This document shows, piece after piece, positions 39,521-54,055 of a stretch of 64,000 bases of DNA (position 1 is the first letter of the stretch; every line of letters begins with the position of its first letter). Source of the DNA: Reyranella soli. GTDB taxonomy: Bacteria; Pseudomonadota; Alphaproteobacteria; Reyranellales; Reyranellaceae. A program made the translations under genes and the position numbers. Location: contig NZ_BKAJ01000072.1 of NCBI RefSeq assembly GCF_007992495.1, positions 1 to 64,000 of the forward strand. Direction: 5' to 3'. The notes under the pieces were generated by a model that saw only the letters and a program-made list of their open reading frames with translations, searched no databases and was not told the DNA's origin.

Positions 39521-39736
39521 CACGACACCCCCTGTTCGAAGATAGTGCACGGGCTGGTCGTCGGGCGCGATGCGCCAAGTTGGCGCCTTGGCGAGCGCGC
39601 CAGCCCCTCTGTTATGCGTTCCGGCCGGCTTGAACGGGCCAATCCGCGGGCCTAGCCTCGGCGCTCGGCAGTGGACGCTCGATTGTTGAGTTCAGTCCGC
39701 GTGCGTCTCCTGTGCGACACAAGTGAGGAGACACCA

Positions 39737-40999
39737 ATGAGACGGCAGGAAACAGCTCTAGCGAAGGCATGCCTGGCAGGCGTCATCGCAGCCGTGTTCG
39801 GCTGCGCTTCGATGGCGGTGCAGGCTCAGGAACTCAAGAAGTACGATTCGAGCGGCAAGGACTTCTGGCTCAAGCCGCCGCCCGACTGGTTCCTCGGCGA
39901 CGAGAACAAGGAGCAGAAAGGCCAGACTCCCAACCCGGGCCAGCCGACTCCGACACCCAAGGCCGAGCTCGACAAGATCCTCGCCGGCATCAAGCTGCCG
40001 CCCGGCTTCAAGATCGCGGTATGGGCCGACAGCGTTCCGCAGGCGCGGCAGATGGCATGGGGCGACAAGGGCACGCTGTTCGTCGGCACCTTCGACAAAG
40101 GCACGGTGCATTCGGTCAGCGGGCCGGACGGACAGAAGGTCGTAAAACCCTTCATCACCGGCTTGCGCATGCCGACCGGTGTCGCCTTCCAGGACGGCGC
40201 GCTTTACGTCGTCGATATCGACAAGCTCTATCGCTACGACAATCCCGAGGCCAACCTCGAGAGGGCGCCGGAAGGCAAGGTCGTCTACGACGACTTCCCG
40301 CCCTACGTGCCGCACGGCTGGAAGTACCTGGTGCCCGACGGCAAGGGCTGGTTCTACATCCCCGTCGGCGTGCCCTGTAACATCTGCCTGCCGCCGGCCA
40401 GCACCGGCCACTATCGCCGCGTCGATCCCAAGACCGGCGCGGCCGAGATCGTGGCGCTGGGCGTGCGCAACAGCGTCGGCGGCGCAGTCGATCCCAGGAC
40501 CGGCCAGCTCTGGTTCACTGACAACGGGCGTGACTGGGTCAGCGACGACCTGCCGAACGACGAGCTCAACCGGGTGAGCAAGATCGGCGAGCATTTCGGC
40601 TATCCGTACTGCCACCAGGGCGACCTTGCCGATCCCAAGTACGGCGCCGATCGCAAGTGCTCGGAGTTCACGCCGCCGGTGTACAAGCAGGGCCCACACA
40701 TCGCCGGTCTCGGCATGAAGTTCTACACCGGCGACATGTTCCCGCCGGAATACAAGAACGGCATCTTCATCGCCCAGCACGGCTCGTGGAACCGGGCGAA
40801 GAAGCTCGGCTATCGCGTGCTCTTCCTGTCGGTCGATCCCGACGGCAAGAACCCGAAGGAACAGGTCTTTGCCGGCACCTGGCTCGACGACCAGAAGATC
40901 CTGGGCCGTCCGGCCGACGTCCTGCAGGCGCCCGACGGCTCCCTGCTGGTCGCCGACGACCAAGCCGGCGCGATCTATCGCATCAGCTATCAGAAGTGA
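39737..40999 (+). CDS. PQQ-dependent sugar dehydrogenase-like protein (sorbosone dehydrogenase family), copy 1
   Basis: About 420 residues with a signal peptide (AKACLAGVIAAVFGCASMAV) and a six-bladed beta-propeller of the soluble glucose/L-sorbosone dehydrogenase type: LPPGFKIAVWADSVPQARQM, FITGLRMPTGVAFQDGALYV, PHGWKYLVPD, PVGVPCNICLPP, NDELNRV, FGYPYCHQGD and IAQHGSWNR. The quinone-adjacent His and Arg blocks are kept. It opens the plus-strand PQQ block and is followed, after a palindromic repeat, by a dihaem cytochrome c that would accept its electrons. A paralogue at 49283-50512 has the same pairing on the other strand. Substrate is unknown. Confidence 0.88.
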   Translation: MRRQETALAKACLAGVIAAVFGCASMAVQAQELKKYDSSGKDFWLKPPPDWFLGDENKEQKGQTPNPGQPTPTPKAELDKILAGIKLPPGFKIAVWADSVPQARQMAWGDKGTLFVGTFDKGTVHSVSGPDGQKVVKPFITGLRMPTGVAFQDGALYVVDIDKLYRYDNPEANLERAPEGKVVYDDFPPYVPHGWKYLVPDGKGWFYIPVGVPCNICLPPASTGHYRRVDPKTGAAEIVALGVRNSVGGAVDPRTGQLWFTDNGRDWVSDDLPNDELNRVSKIGEHFGYPYCHQGDLADPKYGADRKCSEFTPPVYKQGPHIAGLGMKFYTGDMFPPEYKNGIFIAQHGSWNRAKKLGYRVLFLSVDPDGKNPKEQVFAGTWLDDQKILGRPADVLQAPDGSLLVADDQAGAIYRISYQK

Positions 41000-41009
41000 C
41001 GCCAACGGC

Positions 41010-41125
41010 GTCATCCCGACCAAGGCCCGAAGGGCCGCGTGGAGGGATCTCCTCTTGAACAACTCGCGTTGAAGAGGAGGTCCCTCGACTGCGCCGCCCG
41101 AAGGGCGGCTCCGCTCGGGATGACG
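41010..41125. repeat. Palindromic intergenic repeat with expanded centre
   Basis: Outer arms GTCATCCCGA (left) and GCTCGGGATGAC (right) match the family. The inner part holds a second foldback (GGAGGGATCTCCTCTTGAAC against GAAGAGGAGGTCCCTCGA) and extra GC-rich GGCCCGAAGGGCC and CGCCCGAAGGGCG palindromes. It separates the dehydrogenase gene from the cytochrome c gene. Confidence 0.75.
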
Positions 41126-41135
41126 GGAGTTTGTT

Positions 41136-41714
41136 ATGCGTTCAGTCGTAACCGCCTTGTTCGTGATGTTCGCAGCGCCGGCGTACGCGCAGTCGCAGCC
41201 GCCCATCAAGGCGCCGGCGATTGCCCAGACCTGCATCGCCTGTCACGGCATCCGGGGCATCTCGACCAGCAAGGACTCGCCCTCGCTGGCGGGCCAGCCC
41301 GACATCTTCACCCAGTACCAGCTCGTCTTCATGCGCGACGGCCAGCGCCAGCCCGGCGTCATGGCGGGCATCGTGAAGACGCTCACCGACGAGAACATCC
41401 GCGAGCTGGGCGCCTACTACGCGGCCTTGGCCCCGCCGCCGCCCTTCGCCAAGGCCGAGCCGGTCGACGCCGCCAAGGCGAACGCGATCATGGGGCCCCG
41501 GCGCTGCGCCAACTGCCACAAGGACGATTTTTCCGGTCAGGGCGAGACCGGGCGACTGGCCGGCCAGCGGCCCGATTACCTCATCAAGGCCCTGAAGGAC
41601 TTCCGCTCCGGCGCGCGGCGCGGCCGCGGCATGGGCGCGATGATGGAGGTGTCAGTCACGCTGCAGGACGAGGACATCGCGCTTATCGCCCACTATCTGG
41701 CGGCCAAGCCTTGA
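41136..41714 (+). CDS. Dihaem cytochrome c, copy 1
   Basis: This 192-residue exported protein has a signal peptide (SVVTALFVMFAAPAYA) and two class I cytochrome c domains. The haem motifs are CIACH (about residue 33) and CANCH (about residue 127), each followed by a Gly-rich loop, with candidate Met ligands in FMRDGQRQPGVMAGI and GMGAMMEVS. It sits between a PQQ dehydrogenase and pqqA, so it is the likely electron acceptor. A paralogue at 48727-49302 is paired with the second dehydrogenase. Confidence 0.92.
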   Translation: MRSVVTALFVMFAAPAYAQSQPPIKAPAIAQTCIACHGIRGISTSKDSPSLAGQPDIFTQYQLVFMRDGQRQPGVMAGIVKTLTDENIRELGAYYAALAPPPPFAKAEPVDAAKANAIMGPRRCANCHKDDFSGQGETGRLAGQRPDYLIKALKDFRSGARRGRGMGAMMEVSVTLQDEDIALIAHYLAAKP

Positions 41715-41768
41715 CACATTCTTCGAATCCTCGACATCATCCCAAAGCCACTTCCAAGGAGACCCGCC

Positions 41769-41846
41769 ATGGCTTGGAAAACACCGCGTATCGTCGAGAT
41801 CGCCGTCGGCATGGAAATCAACTCGTACGCTTCTGCCGACTTGTAG
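41769..41846 (+). CDS. pqqA: PQQ precursor peptide PqqA (25 aa)
   Basis: A 25-codon frame, MAWKTPRIVEIAVGMEINSY followed by five more residues. It has Glu16 and Tyr20 in the E-x3-Y arrangement that PqqE crosslinks to start PQQ synthesis. An AAGGAGA site at 41756-41762 lies at good distance from ATG 41769. It is followed by a stem-loop and then pqqB. Length and the EINSY core fit the family. It is too short for most gene finders. Confidence 0.95.
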   Translation: MAWKTPRIVEIAVGMEINSYASADL

Positions 41847-41855
41847 TCGCTGCTT

Positions 41856-41881
41856 CCGTCGCGGCCGATAGTCCGCGGCGG
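41856..41881 (+). terminator. Intercistronic stem-loop between pqqA and pqqB
   Basis: CCGTCGCGG / CCGCGGCGG pair as a 9-bp stem (one G-U) around an 8-base loop. No T-run follows, so it is not a classic terminator. It ends five bases before the GTG start of pqqB and may keep pqqA message in excess while limiting pqqB initiation. Confidence 0.6.
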
Positions 41882-41886
41882 TCACC

Positions 41887-42807
41887 GTGAAAGCCGTTGT
41901 TCTGGGGGCCGCCGCCGGCGGCGGCTTCCCACAATGGAACTCTAACGCCGAGGCATGTCGTCGTGCACGCGCCGGGGATAGCAAGGCCGCGGCCCGGACG
42001 CAGGCCTCGCTCGCCGTGAGCGGCGACGGCGAACGCTGGTTCCTGATCAACGCCTCCCCCGACCTTCGCCAGCAGATCCAGGCGCAGCCGATCCTTCATC
42101 CGCGACGGGCGCTGCGCTCCTCGCCGATCGAAGGCGTCATCCTGACCGGCGCCGACGTCGACGCCATCGCCGGCCTGCTGCACCTGCGCGAACGCCAGCC
42201 CTTCTCCCTCTACGCCACCCAGCGCGTGCTGGACGTGCTCGACGCCAATCCGATCTTCGGCGTGCTGTCGCCGGAGTGCGTTCTCCGCGAGGAAGTGCCG
42301 CTCGGCCAGCCATTCACGCTCAGCCATCTCGACGGCAGCGCGAGCGGGCTGGAGGTCGAGCTGTTCGACGTTCCGGGCAAGGTCGCGTTGTACCTCGAAG
42401 GCGGGCGCAACACCGATCTCGCCGGCCAACCGGGCGACACGGTCGGCGTAGAAATCCGCGCCGATGGGCAGCGGCTGATCTACATCCCGGGCTGTGCGCG
42501 CATGACCGATGCGCTGCGACGGCGGCTCTCCGGCGCCGCGGTGGTGCTGTTCGACGGCACGCTGTGGCGCGACGACGAGATGGTGGCGCTCGGGCTCGGC
42601 CCCAAGACGGGCCAGCGCATGGGCCACATGAGCGTCAGCGGTCCGGACGGCACGGTCGCCGCCTTCCGCGACATCCCGGTCAAGCGCCGCATCCTCATCC
42701 ACATCAACAACTCCAATCCGATCCTGCTCGATGATTCGGCCGAACGCATCGCCGTCGAGAAGGAAGGATGGGAAGTCGCCTATGACGGCATGGAGGTCAG
42801 TCCATGA
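41887..42807 (+). CDS. pqqB: PQQ biosynthesis protein PqqB
   Basis: This 306-residue metallo-beta-lactamase-fold protein hydroxylates tyrosine in the crosslinked PqqA-derived peptide. It starts with GTG at 41887. VVLGAAAGGGFPQWNSNAEA is the classic PqqB opening. Later blocks are TQASLAVSGDGERWFLINAS, ILTGADVDAIAGLLHLRE and GTLWRDDEMVALGLGPKTG, as well as RMGHMSV and RRILIHINNSNPIL. The stop overlaps the pqqC ATG as ATGA. Length is standard. Confidence 0.97.
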   Translation: MKAVVLGAAAGGGFPQWNSNAEACRRARAGDSKAAARTQASLAVSGDGERWFLINASPDLRQQIQAQPILHPRRALRSSPIEGVILTGADVDAIAGLLHLRERQPFSLYATQRVLDVLDANPIFGVLSPECVLREEVPLGQPFTLSHLDGSASGLEVELFDVPGKVALYLEGGRNTDLAGQPGDTVGVEIRADGQRLIYIPGCARMTDALRRRLSGAAVVLFDGTLWRDDEMVALGLGPKTGQRMGHMSVSGPDGTVAAFRDIPVKRRILIHINNSNPILLDDSAERIAVEKEGWEVAYDGMEVSP

Positions 42808-43556
42808 ATGCCGATTTGGGGAGCGATCGCCTGCTGGCACCTGACAAGCTCGAGGCCGAGCTGCGCGCCATCGGCGCGGTGCGCTACCACCATCTTCATC
42901 CGTTCCACAAGCTCCTGCACGCAGGCAAGCTCACGCGCGCGCAGGTCCAGGCCTGGGCGCTCAATCGCTACTATTACCAGGCGATGATCCCCATCAAGGA
43001 TGCCCACGCGCTGGTGCGGCTGCCGACCTCGGAGCTGCGCCGCGAATGGCGCCGGCGCATCATCGACCATGACGGCGACGGTCCCGGCAAGGGCGGCATC
43101 GAGCGCTGGCTGAAGCTGGCCGAGGGCGTCGGGCTCGATCGCACCTACGTGCAGTCGACCGAGGGCATTCTTCCCGGCACGCGCTTCGCAGTCGAGGCCT
43201 ACGTCAACTTCGTGCGCGACCGGCCGATCCTGGAAGGCATCGCGTCGTCGCTGACCGAGATGTTCTCGCCCGACATCATCGCCGATCGCGTGCGCGGCAT
43301 GCTGGCAGGGTATTCCTTCATCACCGAGGAGACGCTGGCCTACTTCACGCCGCGCCTCACCCAGGCGCCGCAGGACGTCGACTTCGCGCTCGGCTACGTC
43401 AAGCAGCACGCCACGACGCGCGCCGACCAGGAGGCCGTGCTGGCGGCGCTGCGCTTCAAGTGCGACGTGCTGTGGGCGCAGCTCGACGCGCTGCATTTCG
43501 CCTATGTCGAGCCGGGCCTGATACCGCCCGGCGCCTTCGTGCCGGAGGGGAAATGA
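42804..43556 (+). CDS. pqqC: Pyrroloquinoline-quinone synthase PqqC
   Basis: This 250-residue, all-helical, haem-oxygenase-like protein performs the final ring closure and oxidation to PQQ. Landmarks are the HHLHPFHKLLHAGKLTRAQV block, WALNRYYYQAMIPIKDAHAL, HDGDGPGKGGIERWLKLAEG, TEMFSPDIIADRVRGML and DFALGYVKQHATTRADQEAV. All are characteristic. ATG 42804 overlaps the pqqB stop; its own stop overlaps pqqD. It is not fused to PqqD as in some methylotrophs. Confidence 0.97.
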   Translation: MNADLGSDRLLAPDKLEAELRAIGAVRYHHLHPFHKLLHAGKLTRAQVQAWALNRYYYQAMIPIKDAHALVRLPTSELRREWRRRIIDHDGDGPGKGGIERWLKLAEGVGLDRTYVQSTEGILPGTRFAVEAYVNFVRDRPILEGIASSLTEMFSPDIIADRVRGMLAGYSFITEETLAYFTPRLTQAPQDVDFALGYVKQHATTRADQEAVLAALRFKCDVLWAQLDALHFAYVEPGLIPPGAFVPEGK

Positions 43557-43855
43557 TGGACCGCCTCGTCGTCTCCGCTGAGAGCGTGCTGAACTTCGCG
43601 CCGCACATCGTGTTCCGCTTCGACGAGGTGCGGAAGCGGTGGATCATCCTGGCGCCCGAGCGCTTGATGCTGCCCGACGAGCAGGCGGTCGAGATCCTGC
43701 AGCTGGTCGACGGCAAGACCGGCGTTTCAGGGATCGTCGATTCGCTCGCCGCCCGCTACAGTCAGGCGCCACGCGATCTTATCGCCAAGGACGTCACCGC
43801 CATGCTGCAGGACCTCGCCGACAAGGGATGTCTCGCCGGTGCCGGCCCGGGTTGA
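43553..43855 (+). CDS. pqqD: PQQ peptide chaperone PqqD
   Basis: This 100-residue RiPP recognition element binds the PqqA leader and presents it to PqqE. It has FAPHIVFRFDEVRKRWIILA, PERLMLPDEQAVEILQLVDG and DVTAMLQDLADKG, matching the winged-helix PqqD fold. ATG 43553 (MM start) overlaps the pqqC stop as ATGA, and the 3' end overlaps the pqqE GTG start by 17 bp. A longer upstream frame inside pqqC is rejected. Confidence 0.96.
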   Translation: MMDRLVVSAESVLNFAPHIVFRFDEVRKRWIILAPERLMLPDEQAVEILQLVDGKTGVSGIVDSLAARYSQAPRDLIAKDVTAMLQDLADKGCLAGAGPG

Positions 43856-44978
43856 TCCGCCGCTCGCCCTGCTCGCCGAGCTGACGCATCGTTGTCCGCT
43901 CGCCTGCCCCTATTGCTCCAACCCGGTGAACCTCGAACGCGCCGCGGGCGAGCTTTCCGAGCAGGACTGGCGCCGCGTGCTCGCCGAAGCGGCCGCGCTC
44001 GGCGTGCTGCAGGTGCATTTCTCCGGCGGCGAGCCGATGGCGCGGCGTGATCTTTTGGCCCTGATCGGCGAGGCGAACGGGCTCGGCCTCTACAGCAACC
44101 TCATCACCTCCGGCGCCTTGGGCGGCGCACGCGAGATCGAGGCCTTCGCCAAGGCAGGGCTGAAGCACGTGCAGCTGAGCTTCCAGGACTTTTCCGCCGA
44201 CAACGGCGATCGCATCGCCGGGCTTTCAGGCGCGCATGACCGCAAGACGCGCTTTGCGGAGGCAGTGCGCGCCGCCGGCCTGCCGCTCACGCTCAACCTG
44301 GTCGTACATCGCCAGAATCTCGACGGCGTGCCGCAGATGATCGAGATGGCGCTGAAACTGGGCGCGCGGCGCGTCGAGATCGCCCATGTCCAGTACTATG
44401 CCTGGGCATTCGCCAACCGCGCCGCTCTGCTGCCGACCCGCCGCCAGCTCGACCAGGCCACCGAGGCTGTCGAGGCGGCGCGCCAGCGGCTGAAAGGCGT
44501 GCTCACGATCGATTATGTCGTGCCCGACTATCACGGCGTGCGGCCGAAATCCTGCATGAGCGGCTGGGGTCGCCAGTTCATCAACATCATGCCGTCGGGC
44601 ATCGCCGTCCCATGCCATGCCGCCGAGACGCTGCCCGGCATCGCCTTCCCCTCGGTGCGCACGAACAGCCTTTCAGACATCTGGCACGAGTCCGATGCCT
44701 TCAACCGCTTCCGCGGCACCGACTGGATGGCCGAGCCTTGCCGCAGCTGCGATCGGCGCGAGATCGACTGGGGCGGCTGCCGCTGCCAGGCCTTCCTGCT
44801 GGCAGGCGACGCCGGCCGCACCGACCCGGTCTGCACGCTGTCGCCCGACCACAGCGTGGTCGCGGCCGCGGTGCAGGAGGCCGAAGGCCTCCCGCCGGCG
44901 TTCGTTTATCGGCGTTACAGTAACGCGCCTACTTCGACGCGTCCTTCGGGCGAACCGAATCGGCAACGCCCTGGATGA
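43839..44978 (+). CDS. pqqE: PqqA peptide cyclase PqqE (radical SAM)
   Basis: This 379-residue radical SAM/SPASM enzyme forms the Glu-Tyr C-C crosslink in PqqA. Cys19, Cys23 and Cys26 (HRCPLACPYCSN) bind the SAM cluster; SGGEPMARRDL is the SAM-binding GGE. The SPASM cysteines appear in RPKSCMSGWG, AVPCHAAETLPG and EPCRSCDRREIDWGGCRCQA. The start is GTG 43839. After the usual family end (FVYRRYSN) there is a tail of about 17 residues whose codons are antisense to the last codons of the convergent alcohol dehydrogenase. Confidence 0.96.
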   Translation: MPARVDPPLALLAELTHRCPLACPYCSNPVNLERAAGELSEQDWRRVLAEAAALGVLQVHFSGGEPMARRDLLALIGEANGLGLYSNLITSGALGGAREIEAFAKAGLKHVQLSFQDFSADNGDRIAGLSGAHDRKTRFAEAVRAAGLPLTLNLVVHRQNLDGVPQMIEMALKLGARRVEIAHVQYYAWAFANRAALLPTRRQLDQATEAVEAARQRLKGVLTIDYVVPDYHGVRPKSCMSGWGRQFINIMPSGIAVPCHAAETLPGIAFPSVRTNSLSDIWHESDAFNRFRGTDWMAEPCRSCDRREIDWGGCRCQAFLLAGDAGRTDPVCTLSPDHSVVAAAVQEAEGLPPAFVYRRYSNAPTSTRPSGEPNRQRPG

Positions 44979-47043
44979 AGGCGGTGAGCTTGACCACGTC
45001 GTCCTCGCTGAGCTTGCCGGTGAAGTTCGGCATGCCACGCGCGGCGTAGGCGTCGCTGAACACGATGGTCTTGAGATTGCGGATCGGATCGGCGCCGACA
45101 TAGGCGAGGTTGCGGACATTGCCGCCCCGGTCGACGCCGGGCACGCCGTGACAGATCGCGCAGTTGGAGACGTAGGCCAGCGTGCCCGGAGCGACGTCGG
45201 CCGGATCGTACTTCACGCCCGTCAGCAGGTTCTCCATCTGGTACTTGGTGAAGGCCGGCGGTGCCGCCTTGCCGCCCACCGCGAAGGTGTAGACGGTGCC
45301 CGGGTTGTTGGTCTCGGTGGCGCGCGCCGTCACGCCGTAGACGCCGCCCCAGCCCACCGCCACCGAAACGTACTGCTTGCCGTCGATCATGTAGGTCGAT
45401 GCCGCGGCCACCACGCCGGTACCAGTCGGCTTCTCCCACAGCTTCTCGCCGGTCGTGGCGTTGTAGGCGACGAAGCGGCCGTCGGCCGTGCCCTGGAACA
45501 CGAGATTGCCCGCCGTCGTGAGCGTGCCGCCGTTCCACGGCGAGACATGCTCTTGGCGCCAGGCCTCCTTCTGCTTCACCGGATCCCAGGCGATCAGCCG
45601 GCCGAACATCGGCGCGGTGGGCGGCGTCGCGTTGATGTCGTAGCCCACGTTCCAGCCGAGATTGCCCATGAACTCGCCGGGCTTCTTGGCGTCATGCTTC
45701 CAGTTCTTCTGGCCGGTCAGGTTTACCGGGATGTTCTGCGCCGGCAGGTAGACCAGCCCGGTGCCGGGATTGAACGACATCGGATGCCAGTTGTGCGCGC
45801 CATAGGGGCCGGGAACGGTGTCGAACGGCTTGTCCGGCGAGCGCGCCTCGGCCACCTCGATCGGCCGGCCGTTGGCGTCGTAGCCGGTGGCCCAGTTCAC
45901 GTCGACGAAGTTCTTGGCCGAGATGAACTCGCCGTTGGTGCGGTCGATGACGAAGAAGAAGCCATTCTTGGGCGCGTGCAGGATGACCTTGCGCGGCTGC
46001 CCGTCGATCGCGATGTCGGCCAGGATCATCGGCTGGGTCGACGTGTAGTCCCAGTTGTCGCCGGGCGTTTCCTGGTAGTGCCACAGGTATTTGCCGGTAT
46101 CGGCATTGAGCGCGACGATCGACGCCAGATAGAGATTGTCGCCGCCGGCCGGGCTGCGCAGGTTGCGGTTCCACGGTGAGCCGTTGCCGGTGCCGAGATA
46201 CACCATGTTGAGGTCGGGGTCGTAGGTGATGCTGTCCCACACCGTGCCGCCGCCGCCATTCACCCAGTAGTTGCCGGCAGGGTCCCAGGTCTTGGCCGCC
46301 GCCGCCATCGACTCGTCTTCGAAGGGTTTGGCAGGATCGCCCGGCACGACGAACCAGCGCCACGCCTGGTTGCCGGTCTCGGCGTCGTAGGCGGTGACGT
46401 AGCCGCGCACGCCATACTCGGCGCCGCCATTGCCGATGATCACCCGGCCGTTGGCGACGCGCGGCGCGCCGGTGATCGTGTAGGAATGCTTGTGGTCGAT
46501 GATGGTGTCCTTTTCCCACACCTTCTTGCCCGTCACGGCGTCGAGGGCGATCAGCCGCCCGTCATAGGCGCCGACGAAGACCTTGCCCTTGTGCAGGGCA
46601 ACGCCGCGATTCACGACGTCGCAACAGCCGCGGTAGCCCTTGTCGCGCGCCACCTCGGGATCGTAGGTCCAGATCTTCTTGCCGGTGCGCGCATCGATGG
46701 CATGGACGACGCTCCACGGCGCACTGACATACATGATGCCGTCGACCACGATCGGGGTCGCCTCGACGCCGCGCGCCGAGTCGAGATCGTAGGACCAGGC
46801 CAGGCCGAGCTCCTTGACGTTGGAGGCGTTGATCTGGTCGAGCTTGCTGAAGCGCGTCTCGCCGAAATCGAGGCCGATGGCAGGCCAGTCCTTCGACGTG
46901 GCGGCATTGCTCTTGATCCAGTTGCCGTCGACCGCCGACGTGACGGCCTTGATGTGACCGGGCGAGCCCTTGGCATCCTGGGCCATGGCGCCGGAGCAAA
47001 AGGCCAGCGCCGCTGCGCCCGCCAACAGCAGAGTACGTGTCAT
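44929..47043 (-). CDS. Quinohaemoprotein alcohol dehydrogenase (PQQ- and haem c-dependent)
   Basis: About 704 residues with a signal peptide (TRTLLLAGAAALAFCSGAMA). It has an eight-bladed PQQ propeller with tryptophan docking repeats, the adjacent disulphide Cys140-Cys141 (GYRGCCDVVNRG), Asn287, and the catalytic Asp332 in PGDNWDYTSTQ. The +2 position is Thr334, not Asp, which points to a Ca2+ rather than lanthanide enzyme. A C-terminal cytochrome c domain holds CAICH (628-632) and Met671 (GMPNF). This is the type II quinohaemoprotein ADH layout. The 3' end overlaps convergent pqqE by 50 bp. It lies 200 bp downstream of the exporter genes on the same strand. Confidence 0.93.
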   Translation of the reverse strand: MTRTLLLAGAAALAFCSGAMAQDAKGSPGHIKAVTSAVDGNWIKSNAATSKDWPAIGLDFGETRFSKLDQINASNVKELGLAWSYDLDSARGVEATPIVVDGIMYVSAPWSVVHAIDARTGKKIWTYDPEVARDKGYRGCCDVVNRGVALHKGKVFVGAYDGRLIALDAVTGKKVWEKDTIIDHKHSYTITGAPRVANGRVIIGNGGAEYGVRGYVTAYDAETGNQAWRWFVVPGDPAKPFEDESMAAAAKTWDPAGNYWVNGGGGTVWDSITYDPDLNMVYLGTGNGSPWNRNLRSPAGGDNLYLASIVALNADTGKYLWHYQETPGDNWDYTSTQPMILADIAIDGQPRKVILHAPKNGFFFVIDRTNGEFISAKNFVDVNWATGYDANGRPIEVAEARSPDKPFDTVPGPYGAHNWHPMSFNPGTGLVYLPAQNIPVNLTGQKNWKHDAKKPGEFMGNLGWNVGYDINATPPTAPMFGRLIAWDPVKQKEAWRQEHVSPWNGGTLTTAGNLVFQGTADGRFVAYNATTGEKLWEKPTGTGVVAAASTYMIDGKQYVSVAVGWGGVYGVTARATETNNPGTVYTFAVGGKAAPPAFTKYQMENLLTGVKYDPADVAPGTLAYVSNCAICHGVPGVDRGGNVRNLAYVGADPIRNLKTIVFSDAYAARGMPNFTGKLSEDDVVKLTAFIQGVADSVRPKDASK

Positions 47044-47243
47044 GGAAACCTCCCGATTGGCCTGTGGTGGACCAAGCGCGTTTCCGAACGACGCAGGACG
47101 ATGACGATAGCGAGAGGACGACGAACTCGTACGCGACAGTTGCCGATGACTATTGCGTCGCACGCGCTCAAGTGGATGGTGCGCCCGCGCCGGCAAACTC
47201 GTCAATGGGTCGCTAGATATGCACGATTACGACGCGGCCATGG

Positions 47244-48041
47244 TCATGCAGCAAGGGACCGACGCAGGATGCGGCCGCTGTCGTAGCGCCAGACCGCGAG
47301 GGCCATGGCGACGACGGTCATCACGACAGTGGCGACGAGGGCCGTGATGTCGAGCCGGCCATACAGGGCGAAGCGGACCAGCTCGACGGCGTGGCTGAAC
47401 GGATTGAGCCGCGCCACCTCGGCCAGCACGGCATTGGCGTCGCTGAGGCGCGACAATGGATAGAGCGCGGTCGAGCCGAAGAACACGGGGAAGATCACGA
47501 AGTTCATGACGCCCGCGAAGTTTTCCAGCTGCTCGACCAGCGACGACAGCAGCAGTCCCAATGCACCCAGCATCAGGCCCGCCAGGATGACCGCCGGCAG
47601 CGCGTAGAGATAGCCGCTGAGCGGCGGCCGCACGCCCCACAGCCAGGCGCAGGCCAGGAAGGCATAGACCTGGGGCAGCGCCACGATGACGCCTGCCACC
47701 AGTCGGCAGGTCAGCAGGTACCAGAGCGGCTGCGGGCTCACCAGCAGCACCTTCATGCTGCCCATCTCGCGGTCGAACACCATCGACAGGGCGATCTGCA
47801 TGCCGTTGAACAGCAGGACCAGCCCGACCAGCCCGGGCACGATGTAGTCCTCGTACGCAACGCCGGGCCCGTAGGGTGGTGTGCCTGACAAATCGACCAT
47901 CGTGCGCAGGCCGGTGCCGAAGATCACCAGCCAGACCAGCGGTCGCACCAGGGAGGCGAAGAAGCGGCTGCGCTGGCGCAGGAAGCGCAGGAACTCGCGC
48001 TCGACGATGCCGACGAAGCAGCGCAGGGCCTTGGCCGTCAT
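47244..48041 (-). CDS. ABC-2 type transporter permease of the PQQ-alcohol system (PedC-like)
   Basis: This 265-residue ABC-2 permease has six hydrophobic segments. GIVEREFLRFLRQRSRFFAS and VRPLVWLVIFGTGLR at the N-terminus, and FDREMGSMKVLLVSPQPLWY in the loop, match ABC-2 exporters. FPVFFGSTALYPLSRL is the conserved late motif. ATG 48041 overlaps the ATPase stop as ATGA. This permease is a known companion of PQQ-dependent alcohol oxidation clusters, whose transported substrate is not established. Its place between a cytochrome and the alcohol dehydrogenase fits that. Confidence 0.9.
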   Translation of the reverse strand: MTAKALRCFVGIVEREFLRFLRQRSRFFASLVRPLVWLVIFGTGLRTMVDLSGTPPYGPGVAYEDYIVPGLVGLVLLFNGMQIALSMVFDREMGSMKVLLVSPQPLWYLLTCRLVAGVIVALPQVYAFLACAWLWGVRPPLSGYLYALPAVILAGLMLGALGLLLSSLVEQLENFAGVMNFVIFPVFFGSTALYPLSRLSDANAVLAEVARLNPFSHAVELVRFALYGRLDITALVATVVMTVVAMALAVWRYDSGRILRRSLAA

Positions 48042-48730
48042 GATGCGAGGCCGGCGAAATAATCGGGCAGCGACGCGGCCGCGATGTCGCGACGATCGTC
48101 GCGAACCTGGCCTTCGTGCAGCACGATCGTGCGGTCGCCGGGCTCGACCTCGTCCGGCAGGTGAGTCGCCCACAGCGCCGTCGCCCCCTCCTCGGCACAC
48201 TGCGCCCGCACGCGCTGCACGATGGCGCGACGGCTCGGGACGTCGAGGCCCACCGTCGCCTCATCGAGCAGCAACAGGCACGGCCGGTGCAGCAAGGCGC
48301 GCGCGATTTCGACGCGGCGGCGCTGGCCGCCGGACAGGGTGCGCACCAGATCGTGCATGCGCGCGGCGAGGCCGAAGCGCTCGAGCTCCTGCTCGATCCG
48401 CTTGCGTGCATCGCTGCGCGACAGGCCGTGCAGCGCGGCGTGGTAGCGCAGCGACTGGGCTACCGTGAGATCGAGATCGAGCGCCGACTGCTGGAAGACG
48501 AAGCCGCAGCCGGCGAGGGCGGCGCTCCGTCCAACCTCATGCCCGAGCACACGGATCGATCCCTGCTGCAGGCCGAGCAGGCCTGCGATCAGCGAGAACA
48601 GCGTCGTCTTTCCTGCGCCGTTGAGGCCGAGCAACAGGACGAAGTCGCCGGGTTCGATCGAGAACGAGACTCCCCGCAGCGCCGGCTTGCGGTACGCATG
48701 GCTGACGTCACGGATCTCGAGCGCGCTCAC
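48038..48730 (-). CDS. ABC transporter ATP-binding protein of the PQQ-alcohol system
   Basis: About 230 residues. Walker A is [12 protein letters not shown], the signature [19 protein letters not shown], and Walker [18 protein letters not shown]. It starts with GTG at 48730, overlapping the cytochrome c stop as GTGA, and couples to the permease by ATGA. Such ATPases form a named subgroup linked with PQQ-dependent alcohol dehydrogenases. The frame is open far upstream, but that part is antisense or out of frame with the cytochrome gene and is rejected. Confidence 0.9.
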
Positions 48731-49302
48731 TGTCGCGCCGAAAAGTAGGCGAGATCCGGGATGTCGGCGTCGGGAATGGGCTGCATGACGTCGCCCATCG
48801 ACGCGTCGTATCCGGGACGCTGGTTGGTCTTGTATTCGCGCAGCGTCTTGACCAGGAAATCCTCGCGTTGACCGGCGATCCGCGGCACGGCTTCGCGGCC
48901 GGCCAGATCGGGGGCGTGGCAGACGTTGCAGCGATATTGCTGAACCAGCGCCTGCCCGCGCGCCATGCGCGCCGGATCGGCCGCCTCGTTTGCCGGCGCC
49001 GGCGGCGGCAGCTTGGCCAGCGCGTCGGCGAAGGTGCGCAGGTCGTCGTCGCTGAAACCCTTCACGGCCTCGTTCATGATCTCGTGGCGCCGCAGCTTCT
49101 CCCGAAAGAGGAAAAGCTGGATAAGAAGGTAAGGCGAAGTCTGCGCGCCGAGCGACGGGACCTCGGGCACGGCCGATTGCCCGTGCTCGCCGTGGCACGC
49201 CAGGCAAGGCGCAATGCGCTCCTGCAGCGCCTCCGCCCACGCACACGACGTCCAGGCGTAGAGCAGGATCAGGACAACCGGCTTACTGTGCGCGGCTGAC
49301 AC
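48727..49302 (-). CDS. Dihaem cytochrome c, copy 2
   Basis: This 191-residue exported protein has a signal peptide ([16 protein letters not shown]) and two cytochrome c domains with CLACH (about residue 33) and CNVCH (about 126). [10 protein letters not shown] offers a Met ligand. The organisation mirrors the copy at 41136-41714. Its start lies inside the 3' end of the second sorbosone-dehydrogenase-like gene (20 bp overlap) and its stop overlaps the ATPase GTG, so the unit is tightly coupled. It is the likely electron acceptor for the linked dehydrogenase or the alcohol dehydrogenase. Confidence 0.92.
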
Positions 49303-50512
49303 GATAGACGGCGCCGTTGAAATCGTCGGACACGAGCAACGAGCCGTCAGGCATGGGCAGGACGTCCACCGGACGTCCGACGTAGTTGTTGTCCTGGATG
49401 AAGCCCGTCATGAAAGGCTCCATCGACCGGAAGGTCCCGTCGTCGTTCAGCTTGATGGCCAAAACGTCGCCGCCGACCTTCACCGTGCGGTTCCAGGAGC
49501 CGTGCCGCGCGAGGAAGAGCACGCCGCGATAGTCATCGCCAAGGCCGTTGTCCGTGTAGAACTTCATGCCGAGCGCGGCCGAATGCGGGCCGACCAGGGT
49601 GACGGGCGCCGTGAACTCGCTGCACGACCGCCCCCAACCGAATTCCGGATCGGTGAAATTGCCCTGATGGCAATAAGGGAAGCCGAAGTGATCCTTGCCG
49701 GGCTGGGTGACCCGATTGAGCTTGTCCTCCGGCACATCCTCCGACAGCCAGTCGCGCGAGTTCTCGGAGAAATAGAGCTGCTTCAGCGTCGGATGCCAGT
49801 CCATGCCGACGATCTGGCGAATGCCGTGGGCGTAGACCTCGAGGCCCTTCCCGTCGAGGCCGACGCGATAGATCTTGGTGTGGCGGTCCGACGGCATGCA
49901 GATGTTGCAGGGCGCGCCGACCTGAAAATAGAGCTTCTCGTCAGGTCCGACGGTCAGGTATTTCCAGCCATGCGGCTCGTCCTTCGGCAGACCGTCGAGG
50001 ATGACGGTGGGCTTCGGTGGACTGTCGAGATTGTCCTCGATCTTGTCGATCCTGGAGATCTGCGAGAGCTCGGCGATGTAGAGCGTGCCGTCGTGCAGGG
50101 CGATGCCGTTCGGCCGATGCAGGCCGGAGGCGATCACCTTCACCTCGCGCTTGCCGTCCTTGGTGACGATGGCATGCACCTTGTCCTGCACGCGGCTCGA
50201 GACGAAAACGGTACCCTTGTCGCCGAGCCGGAGCGTGCGCGCGTTGGGAACGCCGGCCGCATAGACCTCGATCTTGAAGCCATCCTTGACCTTGAGCTTG
50301 TCGAGCGGAAGCTTGTCTGCCGGCGTGGGCAGCGGCGGCGGTGCGATCGGCGCCAGCTTGGAATCGACGATGGCCGCCGGCATGCCCTGCTTCCACGGTG
50401 GCGAGTCGGCCGCCTGCTGGGTTTGCGCCTTGGCGGCGGCGCTGACGACCAGAAACCCGATCAGGCCGATGCCGATCGCACGCATTGAAGAGAAAATGCC
50501 TGCACTTTGCAT
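49283..50512 (-). CDS. PQQ-dependent sugar dehydrogenase-like protein (sorbosone dehydrogenase family), copy 2
   Basis: This 409-residue exported beta-propeller is a paralogue of the protein at 39737-40999. Shared landmarks are [85 protein letters not shown] and [26 protein letters not shown] ribosome site supports ATG 50512 over the ATG at 50485. It heads a minus-strand unit with cytochrome c, exporter and alcohol dehydrogenase. The N-terminal lead is shorter than in copy 1. Confidence 0.88.
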
Positions 50513-50558: not shown

Positions 50559-53207
50559 CTATTCCGCGGCTTTGGGCATGGCCTCCTCTACTTCGGCGAA
50601 GCGGCGCAGGGCTTCGGCCATCTTCGCGCGGCCGTCTACGCCGGTCGCCACCACGTCGACCATGGTGAACGACGAGTGGAAGTGTCCGCCCGCCTGGAGC
50701 TGCTCTACCGGTACGCCGGCAGCGGCCAAGGCTTCGGCATAGGCGATGCCCTCGTCGCGCAAGGGATCGAACTCGCAGGTCACCACGAACGCGGCGGGCA
50801 GGCCCTCGAGCTTGCCGCGCAGCGGCGACGCGCGCGGATCGGTCCGGTCGGCCGGCGAACAGTAGAGGTCCCAGAACCAGTACATCAACGAGCGCGTCAG
50901 GAAGTAGCCCGTCGCGTTCTCGACGTAGGATGGCCGGTCGAACGTGCAGTCGGTGACCGGGTTTACCAGGAGCTGGCCGGCAATCGATGGTCCGCCGCGG
51001 TCGCGCGCCAGCTGACAGGTCACTGCCGCGATGTTGCCGCCGGCGCTCCAGCCTGCGACCAGCAGCGGGCCGGGCCGGCCACCGAGTTCCGCGGCGTGCT
51101 CGCCAATCCAGCGCAGCGCCGCGTAGCCGTCCTCGGCTGCCGCCGGAAAGCGATGCTCCGGCGCGTGCCGGTAACCGACGCTGACGAAGATCATGCCGCT
51201 GCGCCGGCACATGTCACGGCAGAACGGATCGTCGGACTGCGCATCCCCCAGGACCCAGCCGCCGCCATGGAAATAGACCACGATCGGATGCGGTCCCGGC
51301 GTCGCCGGTCGATAGAGGCGGTACGGCAGTGGACCGTCGGCGCCGGCCAACGTGCCGTCTAAAACCTCGCCGACCGGCCGGCCGGCGGGACGGGTCGCGT
51401 TGAACTGGGCGACGAAGCCGCGCGCGCCCTCGGCGCCGAACGATTCCAGTGGCGGCAAGTTCAGGTCGGCCAGCATGTTCAACACCAGCCGCACGTCGGG
51501 CTGCAGTCGAACGATCTCGCCGTCGTCGCATTGCGCGGCGCCATTGGGGCCGCTCAGCGTGAAGCCCAGCATGCCGCGGCTCACGACCTCGTCGCAGATC
51601 GTGCGGTAGGGGCCGACGCCGCCCGGATAGGGCATCAGGCCCGGCGCCTTGCCCGGCACGTTCGCTCCTGTGTACCAGGTGTTGGCCAGCCGATGCAGCG
51701 TGAGCTGCGAGCAGTCGGCCATGTGCCGCGCCCAACCGGCCTGGGCCGCTTCGGTCGCCTCGATGGCGGTGAACCCCGCCTCGCGCATCGCCATCAGGCA
51801 GTCGACGACCCAGTCGGCGTGCTGCTCGATCGACACGACCATGTTCGAGAACACCGACGGGCTGCCGGGTCCGGTGATCATGAACAGGTTGGGGAAGCCG
51901 GCCACGGTGAGCCCGAGATAGGTTTTAGGCCCGCTGGCCCAGACGTCGGATATCGATTTCCCACCGCGCCCCGCTATCGGATGGACCGACGTGATCGCGC
52001 CGGTCATGGCGTCGAAGCCGGTGGCGAACACGATCACATCGAGATCGAAACTGCGCCGGTCGGTCTTGATGCCCGACGCCGTGATCGCCTGGATCGGCTC
52101 CTGCCGCAGGTTGACCAGGGTGACGTTGGGTCGGTTGAACGTCGCGTAGTAGTCGGTCTCCAGACACGGGCGCTTGGACCCGAAGGGATGGTCGCGCGGC
52201 GTGAGCGCTTCCGCCGTTTCGGGATCCTTCACGATCGAGCGGATCCGCTCGCGCAAAAGATCGGACGCCAGCGCATTGCCCTCTAGGTCGCCGCCCTGAT
52301 CGGCCCACAGCTGGCTCAGCATGGCGACGAGATCGCCGGCGGCCAGCGCCTTCTCGAAACGCTGGCGACGTTCGGCCTCGCTCAGCTGCCAGCTGAACTC
52401 CGTGGCCCGCTCCAACGGCACGCCGGTCAGCGACATGCGGGCCTGCGCACGATAATCGGCGCGGTCTTTTTCCAGCGCCGCGACCCGATCGGCCGGCGAC
52501 GGGCCGTTGTGCGCCGGGAAAGCGAAGTTCGGCGTACGCTGGAACACCGTCAGACGCGCCGCCTGCTCGGCGATCTTTGGGATCGACTGGACGCCCGACG
52601 ACCCCGTGCCGATGACCGCGACGCGCTTGCCGGCAAGCTCGACGCCGTCATGCGGCCAGCGGCCGGTGAAGTAGATCTCGCCCTTGAAATCGCCGACGCC
52701 GTCGATCTCCGGCGGCTTGGGCGCAGAAAGGCAACCGCTCGCCATGATGTAGTAGCGGCAGGACACGGGCTTGCCGTTGTCGGTCGTGAGCAACCAGCGT
52801 TGCGCGGCCTCGTCCCAGGTCGCCGTCAGTACCTTGGTGCCGAAGCGGATGTCGCGCCTGAGGTCGTAGCGATCGGCGACGAAGCCCAGGTAGCGCAGGA
52901 TCTCGGGCTGGGTTGCGTACTTCTCCGACCAATGCCAGGCGCTCTCCAGCTCCGGATCGAAAGTGTAGCTGTAGTCGGTGGTCTGGATGTCGCAGCGGGC
53001 GCCGGGATAGCGGTTCCAGTACCAGGTGCCGCCGACATCGTCGGCCGTGTCCAGCGCCACGGCCGTGAAGCCCGCCCGGCGCAGGCGAATGAGCAGATAC
53101 AGGCCGGCAAAACCGGCACCGACCACGGCGACGTCGACCTGTTGCGCATCCTGCGCGCCGGCGGCGCCCATCTCACTTGGCGTCTGCGAAGCACTTGGGA
53201 GTGGCAT
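50559..53207 (-). CDS. Fusion: Baeyer-Villiger-type flavin monooxygenase + HSL-family alpha/beta hydrolase
   Basis: An 882-residue two-enzyme protein. Residues 20-550 are a class B flavin monooxygenase: FAD fold GAGFAG (30-35), [22 protein letters not shown] fold GTGSSG (200-205), and Arg346 in [20 protein letters not shown]. The Baeyer-Villiger fingerprint reads F174-x-G176-x3-Phe180-T-x2-W184-P, with Phe where His is usual. Residues 600-880 are a hormone-sensitive-lipase-type esterase: HGGG 647-650, Ser721 (GWSAGG), Asp814 and His842 or His844. Coupled activity would turn a ketone into an ester or lactone and then hydrolyse it. ATG 53207 is chosen; the frame beyond is antisense to the SDR gene. 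It is divergent from that SDR. Confidence 0.93.
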
Positions 53208-53308
53208 GATGGCGCTCCTCCTGTTGCGTCTTGTTCGGATGGAACCGACTGGCTCCGGCAGCAATAATGCCCCCGTTTGCTCACGGCGTCGATTCATCGG
53301 AGAACAGC

Positions 53309-54055
53309 ATGAAGCTTGCGGGAAAAATCGCCCTTGTAACCGGCGGGTCGCGCGGGATCGGCCGCGCCACGGCGCTGGCCTTCGCGGCCGAAGGCGCGGA
53401 CATCGCCTTCTGCCATCTGAACGACGACGCCAAGGCCGACGAAACCGCCGGCGAAATCCGCGCTCTGGGTCGGCGCACCCTGCACCGCTCGGTCGATGTT
53501 GCGGATATCGCGGCCGGACGAGGCTTTGCCGAACAGGCGGCACGCGAGCTGGGACCGATCGACATCCTGTTCAACAATGCTGGCATCAACATCCGCAAGC
53601 CCTTCGAGGGCTACACCGAGGAGGAGTTCGACCGCATCTTCGCCGTCCATGTGAAGGGGATGTTCTTCATGGCCCAGGCGATCTACCCGGCGATGGTGGC
53701 TCGCGGACAGGGCTGCATCATCAACGTCGCCTCGCAGCGTGGCCTGAAGGGCGCAGTGAACTCCGCACCCTACTCCTCCGCCAAGGCCGCCATCATGGGC
53801 TTCACGCGCGCGCTGGCGTGGGAAGCGACACCGAAGGGCGTCCGCGTCAACGCCATCGCGCCCGGCCCGGTCGTCACCGACCTGACGGCGACCATGACAC
53901 CCGCGGATCGCCAGGCCTTCATCGATGCCCTACCGGTCGGCCGCTTCGGCCGGCCGGAGGAAATCGCCGCGACCGCCCTGTTGCTGGCCGGTCCGGACGG
54001 CGGCTTCTATGTCGGCGCGACGCTGTCACCCAACGGCGGCGACGTCATGTACTGA
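53309..54055 (+). CDS. Short-chain dehydrogenase/reductase (classical SDR)
   Basis: This 248-residue protein starts with [20 protein letters not shown] (cofactor motif TGxxxGIG), then [13 protein letters not shown] (NNAG), INVASQRGL (catalytic Ser) and [20 protein letters not shown] (YxxxK), then [14 protein letters not shown]. Ala/His-rich residues after strand 2 (FCHLNDDAK) do not decide NAD versus NADP. It is divergent from the monooxygenase-esterase fusion across 100 bp and could supply its ketone by oxidising a secondary alcohol. A start at 53231 is possible but would read through the divergent promoter region. Confidence 0.93.

What the first reader, a model, noticed from the sequence alone, without database searches (positions are those of the whole stretch)
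50559..53207. Natural fusion of a Baeyer-Villiger-type monooxygenase with an HSL-family esterase
One uninterrupted frame of 882 codons holds a complete flavin monooxygenase (both dinucleotide folds, late ATGxD-type segment) and a complete esterase (HGGG, GWSAGG, Asp814, His842/844). In known pathways a Baeyer-Villiger enzyme and a separate esterase act in sequence (ketone to ester/lactone to acid plus alcohol). Here both are covalently linked, with an SDR that could provide the ketone divergent 100 bp away. This is a compact three-step oxidation module, and the fusion may channel reactive or toxic lactone.
Basis: partly seen in the sequence, partly recalled or inferred. Interest (0 to 1): 0.75.

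Follow-up and report, generated by a model that had tools for sequence, protein, structure and literature searches.

The report
Ketone-oxidizing enzyme fused to an esterase
Many soil bacteria make one long protein that joins an enzyme resembling those that turn ketones into esters with an enzyme that cuts esters, so that two successive steps of breaking a carbon chain probably sit on a single molecule.

Summary
On the minus strand, 53207-50559, one frame of 882 codons carries a Baeyer-Villiger-type monooxygenase (48% identical to PAMO) and an HSL-family esterase. It is no sequencing error: the fused frame occurs in 8 of 65 genomes of the window's genus (own included) and in 126 of 146 Bradyrhizobium genomes, 121 of these to the esterase's end, and in other proteobacterial and actinobacterial records. 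Both halves keep their catalytic residues and are under purifying selection. Fused forms make four separate groups in my trees, one in reverse order, and unfused adjacent pairs are common. A two-step enzyme turning ketone into acid plus alcohol is the best reading.

Two signatures mark the window's clade: the His of the published BVMO fingerprint is absent (0 of 39 have it; 88 of 102 unfused do), and the esterase elbow is GWSAG or GYSAG, not G[D/E]SAG. Motif-based BVMO surveys could miss it; I found no description of such a fusion in the open-licence papers searched.

The SDR three-step idea is weakly supported: the window's SDR stays near the fusion only in close strains, though other SDRs lie near three further copies. 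Channelling, substrate and chemistry are untested.

The parts
50559..53207 (-). Fused monooxygenase-esterase gene, 882 codons
   Evidence: homologous fused frames
51555..53147 (-). BVMO-type flavin monooxygenase domain, about residues 21-551; D73 and R346 align with PAMO D66 and R337; fingerprint-2 His replaced by F180
   Evidence: PAMO alignment; fingerprint counts
51501..51554 (-). Inter-domain segment, residues 552-569, conserved in the close clade; 14-16 residues between aligned domain ends in 28 of 28 clade rows; modelled with pLDDT 83-89 per 10-residue block over 541-570
50562..51500 (-). HSL (family IV) esterase domain, residues 570-882: HGGG 647-650, GWSAGG with S721, D814, H844
53231..54055 (+). 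Divergent SDR (adh_short); ortholog kept near the fusion in close strains only; partnership possible, not shown
49283..50512 (-). GSDH/DUF7133-like protein 46 bp downstream on the same strand; possible co-transcription; beside the fusion also in L156 only
44929..47205 (-). PQQ-dependent type II quinohemoprotein alcohol dehydrogenase at the end of a same-strand run (fusion, GSDH-like, cytochrome c, ABC ATPase, PedC-type permease, this gene); possible local alcohol-to-ketone supplier
   Evidence: shared with L154 and L156

Best explanation
The gene encodes a bifunctional enzyme. The N-terminal FAD/NADPH-dependent domain inserts an oxygen next to the carbonyl of a ketone (Baeyer-Villiger reaction); a PAMO/steroid-monooxygenase-like aryl or linear ketone is my guess. 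The C-terminal HSL-type esterase then hydrolyses the ester to an acid and an alcohol through Ser721-Asp814-His844. Shown here: the fusion, its conservation, conserved catalytic residues in both domains, purifying selection on both. Inferred: FAD/NADPH use, ketone as substrate, order of the steps. Not shown: channelling. The simplest benefit of fusion is obligatory co-expression and proximity of the two steps.
For: Sequence and fold matches to PAMO (48% identity, TM-score 0.90 to 1w4x) and to Est8/EST2. The Asp and Arg aligned with PAMO D66/R337 are conserved in 150 of 150 BVMO domains aligned. S721, D814 and H844 are invariant in 34 of 34 aligned fusions. dN/dS 0.11-0.24 for the BVMO part and 0.09-0.18 for the esterase part in nine comparisons. 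Fused frame in 8 of 65 genus genomes and 126 of 146 Bradyrhizobium genomes. Separate fused groups in both orders. Adjacent gene pairs: in the plasmid collection 22 of the 23 annotated rows among the 30 listed name separate oxidoreductase and hydrolase genes. BVMO and a separate hydrolase acting in sequence are proposed in PMC9836352 (passages) and PMC6304351 (passages).
Against: The published fingerprint FxGxxxHxxxW[P/D] is not met (F180), so the chemistry may differ. No substrate, cofactor or product was tested. The window's neighbours are not conserved outside close strains, so context gives no substrate. In 5 of 127 Bradyrhizobium places the match stops inside the esterase (residues 618-788): one of these lies at a contig end, another in a single-contig genome, so some lineages may have damaged copies. 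Loop residues 398-404 and 509-523 of the monooxygenase are poorly modelled.
Confidence: 0.7

Rival explanations
1. Tether without channelling: both activities are real and act in sequence, but fusion only fixes stoichiometry and co-expression; the ester diffuses freely between the sites. (A variant of the best explanation, not exclusive of it.)
For: Fusion occurs in both orders and unfused adjacent pairs exist, so no one geometry is needed.
Against: In the window's clade the linker length is constant (28 of 28 rows at 14-16), its sequence is conserved and it is modelled as ordered, which would suit a fixed arrangement.
Confidence: 0.5
2. The monooxygenase half no longer oxidizes ketones but oxygenates something else (sulfide, amine, aldehyde), and the esterase serves a different bond of the same substrate.
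For: 0 of 39 members of the clade have the fingerprint His, while 88 of 102 unfused relatives keep it.
Against: The Asp and Arg aligned with PAMO D66/R337 are conserved in 150 of 150. A fungal BVMO with Gln in place of the His (BVMOAf1) still oxidizes a bicyclic ketone as well as sulfides, though not phenylacetone or cyclohexanone (PMC3762062, passages).
Confidence: 0.18
3. Esterase first: the esterase releases a hydroxy- or keto-product from an ester, and the monooxygenase then oxidizes it.
For: The esterase comes first in 3 reverse fusions and 8 gene pairs of 150 loci classed.
Against: Domain order need not follow reaction order. The two BVMO pathways whose passages I read run from ketone to ester or lactone to cleavage (PMC6304351, PMC9836352).
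Confidence: 0.12
4. Artefact: a sequencing or assembly error joined two genes.
For: Unfused relatives exist, one in the same frame with only a stop between the genes (Nocardia farcinica).
Against: The same fused frame is found in over 130 genomes, and the junction around codons 540-620 is open in all 34 aligned fusions.
Confidence: 0.01

Closest known systems
Phenylacetone monooxygenase (PAMO) and steroid monooxygenase, type I BVMOs
   Same: About 48% identity over residues 19-551, same fold, conserved Arg and Asp, first fingerprint
   Different: Solved chains of about 540-550 residues without an esterase; fingerprint His present in PAMO, Phe here
HSL/family IV esterases Est8, EST2
   Same: HGGG, nucleophile elbow, Asp and His; match over the whole domain
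   Different: Asp before the nucleophile Ser in both chains aligned, Trp here; no monooxygenase attached
Unfused BVMO + hydrolase gene pairs (Polaromonas JS666 plasmid 2, Roseomonas marmotae plasmid; Sphingobium AntQ-1 anthraquinone clusters, PMC9836352, passages)
   Same: Same two kinds of enzyme, proposed to act in sequence in the last
   Different: Two polypeptides; the more highly expressed AntQ-1 cluster has a luciferase-like type II enzyme
BVMOAf1 of Aspergillus fumigatus (PMC3762062, passages)
   Same: A BVMO with a natural C-terminal extra domain and a replaced fingerprint His
   Different: Extra domain is a putative polynucleotide synthase, not an esterase; His is Gln; a truncated version was made for study

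Membership tests
Type I BVMO | Two GxGxx[G/A] dinucleotide motifs | tested here: met
   GAGFAG 30-35, GTGSSG 200-205
Type I BVMO | Fingerprint [A/G]GxWxxxx[F/Y]P[G/M]xxxD | tested here: met
   [15 protein letters not shown] 59-73 (motif as given in PMC4498894)
Type I BVMO | Fingerprint FxGxxxHxxxW[P/D] | tested here: not met
   [12 protein letters not shown]: His replaced by Phe180; 0 of 39 sequences of this fused clade have His. Hence called BVMO-like, not filed as a formal type I BVMO
Type I BVMO | Active-site Arg and Asp (PAMO R337, D66) | tested here: met
   R346, D73; their catalytic role is recalled, not from a call
Type I BVMO | FAD- and NADPH-dependent ketone to ester conversion | not testable with these tools
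   needs assay
HSL / family IV esterase | HGG(G) oxyanion motif, GxSxG, Asp-His triad, Abhydrolase_3 | tested here: met
HSL GDSAG or GTSAG-type subfamily | Asp/Glu, or a hydrophilic residue, before the nucleophile Ser (as described in PMC6986724, passages) | tested here: not met
   Trp720; 21 of 22 clade rows Trp, one Tyr; all 29 other rows Asp or Glu
LipP1 equivalog (NF058653) | score at or above the curated cut-off 350 | tested here: not met
   338.3 bits
Chloramphenicol hydrolase (NF033149) | score at or above 500 | tested here: not met
   253 bits
Pentalenolactone D synthase PtlE (NF045818) | score at or above 1100 | tested here: not met
   315.1 bits

The most novel reading that the evidence does not exclude
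The window's clade is a distinct class of bifunctional C-C-cleaving enzyme in which the monooxygenase was re-tuned after it became tied to an esterase: the fingerprint His, kept by most unfused relatives, is missing in three of the four fused groups, and in the window's clade the esterase gained a Trp or Tyr at the nucleophile elbow. If so, the His has a role (domain rotation, product release) that the fused partner takes over, and the two sites work as one unit. Because BVMO surveys filtered on that His, an enzyme carried by most Bradyrhizobium genomes went unseen.
Probability: 0.25. Interest if true: 0.75.

Novelty: new variant of a known kind. Interest (0 to 1): 0.55.

Why it matters
Ketone to ester to acid conversion is run by two separate enzymes in the two pathways whose papers I sampled. 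A single polypeptide for both, carried by 126 of 146 Bradyrhizobium genomes sampled and by other proteobacteria and actinobacteria, would be a natural cascade enzyme for biocatalysis and a testable case of whether fusion channels an ester. The missing fingerprint His means that motif-screened BVMO sets may overlook it, and it offers a natural test of what that His does.

Tried and rejected
SDR as a fixed part of the system: not established. So the window's SDR is not conserved, but an SDR-family partner remains possible. The check used two SDR queries at E 1e-8 on 25 loci and may miss other SDRs. Hydrolase-BVMO-SDR-ADH gene sets also exist elsewhere, as on the Polaromonas JS666 plasmid.

PQQ alcohol-dehydrogenase cluster as a fixed partner: beside the fusion in the window, L156 (complete) and L154 (without the GSDH-like and cytochrome c genes there); no match in about 8 kb downstream in L155 or in the stretches held for L157-L160 (L158 has only about 1 kb downstream). 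Kept as a local possibility.

Internal restart giving a separate esterase: M546 exists, but it is Leu in L104 and not conserved in distant fusions, and I saw no clear ribosome-binding site in the 30 bases upstream. Not pursued.

Link between fusion and loss of the fingerprint His: 30 of 33 fused and 14 of 68 unfused rows lack it, but only four independent contrasts exist (2.7 of 4 on average in the same direction, 0 opposite, sign test p 0.25). Suggestive only. The Bacillota fusions keep the His.

Bradyrhizobium neighbours: a divergent carboxylesterase-family gene lies upstream in 6 of 8 loci (family assigned on L021). It gives no substrate.

Literature: nine searches ran (some concerned motifs). 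In none did I see a natural BVMO-esterase fusion described; most papers I saw only as listings, and I read passages of seven. Only the open-licence library was searched, so absence from print is not shown.

Rows dropped: 15 of 45 fused and 34 of 88 single rows were thinned before the BVMO tree; L151-L160 were not classed; two contig-cut fused rows (L040, L045) were left out of the esterase tree. Some rows are one genome under two handles (L025 and L125), so counts of sequences are not counts of independent events.

Full report
What is there. The finding's coordinates are right; the gene is on the minus strand, 53207 down to 50559, 882 codons and a stop. Residues 19-551 match PAMO (nearly its whole length) and 568-867 match the esterase Est8. 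Pfam Abhydrolase_3 scores far above its cut-off, and FAD/NAD(P)-binding and FMO-like models also pass theirs. A predicted structure (mean pLDDT 82.8, pTM 0.77) fits PAMO 1w4x with TM-score 0.90 by the target's length; I had no coordinates or error matrix, so domain packing was not examined. The junction is modelled with pLDDT 83-89 per block (residues 541-570); 1-18, 159-163, 398-404, 509-523 and 875-882 are below 50.

Is it real. Yes. In the window's genus 8 of 65 genomes carry the frame (own included; the other seven 77-94% identical), without stops. In a sample of 398 genomes of the phylum, ten (own included) carry it at 79% identity or more, one of them twice, and one more carries a 43% identical fusion. 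In Bradyrhizobium 126 of 146 genomes carry it, at 127 places; 122 places in 121 genomes reach residue 872 or beyond, and five end early, between residues 618 and 788. A named-genome scan, capped at 80 loci, found it also in Vineibacter, Pseudonocardia and Mycobacterium and in records labelled Acidimicrobiia, Gammaproteobacteria, Burkholderiaceae, Chromatiales and others. Synonymous change far exceeds amino-acid change in both halves (dN/dS 0.11-0.24 and 0.09-0.18 in nine comparisons). The 17-codon linker is too short for its ratios to mean much.

How often fusion happened. I classed 150 loci: 45 fused monooxygenase-first, 3 fused esterase-first, 6 monooxygenase-first and 8 esterase-first adjacent pairs, 88 without an esterase gene within 300 bp. 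In the BVMO tree the window's clade is one group of 24 rows (SH-aLRT 99). Bacillota fusions (100) and a small group (Solirubrobacterales MAG, Actinomadura madurae, one alphaproteobacterium; 99) lie elsewhere. The reverse fusions are one group (99) joined to a Streptomyces gene pair (95). The label 'fused' needs at fewest four changes on this tree. In the esterase tree the window's clade is again one group (100/99), the reverse fusions fall in a group with seven esterase-first pairs (100/100), and the Bacillota esterases join a split pair (96/92); there well-supported branches force only two of the three forward origins. I read this as separate gene pairs fused about four times.

Two signatures. 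First, the published BVMO fingerprint FxGxxxHxxxW[P/D] lacks its His in the whole clade: 0 of 39 have it (33 Phe, 3 Val, 1 each Ser, Leu, Tyr). The reverse fusions have Val, Ile and Val, the small second group Ser, Leu and Thr; the three Bacillota fusions keep His. Unfused relatives keep it in 88 of 102. A 2015 survey began with a motif-restricted search and reports that all its sequences show this motif (PMC4498894, passages), so such a screen would tend to pass over these proteins. A fungal BVMO with Gln at this place is active on a bicyclic ketone and on sulfides but not on phenylacetone or cyclohexanone (PMC3762062, passages), so loss of the His need not abolish Baeyer-Villiger activity. 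Second, the residue before the nucleophile Ser is Trp in 21 of 22 clade rows and Tyr in one, against Asp or Glu in all 29 other rows. The HSL subfamilies described in PMC6986724 (passages) are GDSAG and a GTSAG type with hydrophilic residues; 'GWSAG' does not occur in that paper, nor in any of the ten papers listed, of 54,914 matching at least one term.

How it most likely works. Domain 1 would bind FAD and NADPH, form the flavin peroxide and insert oxygen beside a carbonyl; domain 2 would cleave the ester. Domain content, catalytic residues and conservation are shown; the chemistry is inferred from the families. The active-site stretches align closely with PAMO, so an aryl or linear ketone is my guess at substrate, with low confidence. 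A second-type fusion on a Bradyrhizobium plasmid sits near genes annotated as a 4-hydroxyphenylacetate 3-hydroxylase-domain protein and muconolactone isomerase, which fits aromatic catabolism; I did not place it in the trees.

Surroundings. The window's SDR is divergent. Orthologs (95-96% identical) lie about 0.1 kb from the fusion in L154 and L155 and about 2 kb away in L156; none was found in L157-L160 or the 18 named loci searched. Other SDRs (about 30% identical to the window's) lie immediately upstream on the same strand in L160, about 0.4 kb upstream in L024 and about 1.3 kb upstream in L022. So the exact SDR is not conserved, but SDR-family neighbours recur; I have no background rate to judge this. 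On the same strand after the fusion come a GSDH-like protein, a cytochrome c, an ABC ATPase resembling the PQQ-system family (289.5 bits, below its 302.25 cut-off), a PedC-type permease and a type II quinohemoprotein alcohol dehydrogenase; pqqB, pqqC and pqqE lie beyond. This too could supply a ketone locally, but it is shared only with L156 and, in part, L154. Of the window's other neighbours none was found beside the Bradyrhizobium copies. The fusion gene seems to persist or travel on its own.

Against my reading. The BVMO fingerprint is not fully met, so formal membership in type I BVMOs is not claimed. Substrate, cofactors and products are untested. Five Bradyrhizobium places lack part of the esterase match. 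The link between His loss and fusion rests on four contrasts and is not significant.

Verdict. A real, widespread bifunctional variant of the known BVMO-plus-esterase theme, not described in what I saw. Literature was limited to open-licence papers; the nine searches are named in Tried and rejected.

Noticed in passing
39671-50512: A PQQ module: pqqB, pqqC, pqqE, a type II quinohemoprotein alcohol dehydrogenase, cytochrome c, PedC-type ABC permease with ATPase and two GSDH-like proteins.
   Followed up: partly
L133:373-3120, L135:415-3120, L057:5932-8478: Reverse-order fusions, esterase first then monooxygenase, in Alphaproteobacteria (Pfam on L133 and L057).
   Followed up: partly
L168:4019-6496 (Bradyrhizobium sp. 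CB82 plasmid pCB82_1): An 825-residue fused monooxygenase-esterase annotated only as alpha/beta hydrolase fold protein, in an aromatic-catabolism neighbourhood.
   Followed up: partly
L160:11926-12690, L024:4857-5591, L022:3948-4682: SDR genes not orthologous to the window's SDR lie upstream of fused copies on the same strand.
   Followed up: partly
L027:5896-10950 and five Bradyrhizobium places: Copies whose match ends inside the esterase; possible frameshift, truncation or contig end.
   Followed up: no
L045: A contig labelled Bifidobacterium breve MAG whose contig-cut fusion groups with an actinobacterial MAG fusion; probably mislabelled or misbinned.
   Followed up: no
H31, CAKLQF020000036.1: A record named Acinetobacter phage MD-2021a holds hapE-like monooxygenase, dehydrogenase and lipase genes; looks like bacterial DNA under a phage name.
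   Followed up: no
L041:5734-8550 and L167:2398-5541: Monooxygenase and esterase genes adjacent in the same frame, separated by only a few codons or one stop; near-fusions or fissions.
   Followed up: no
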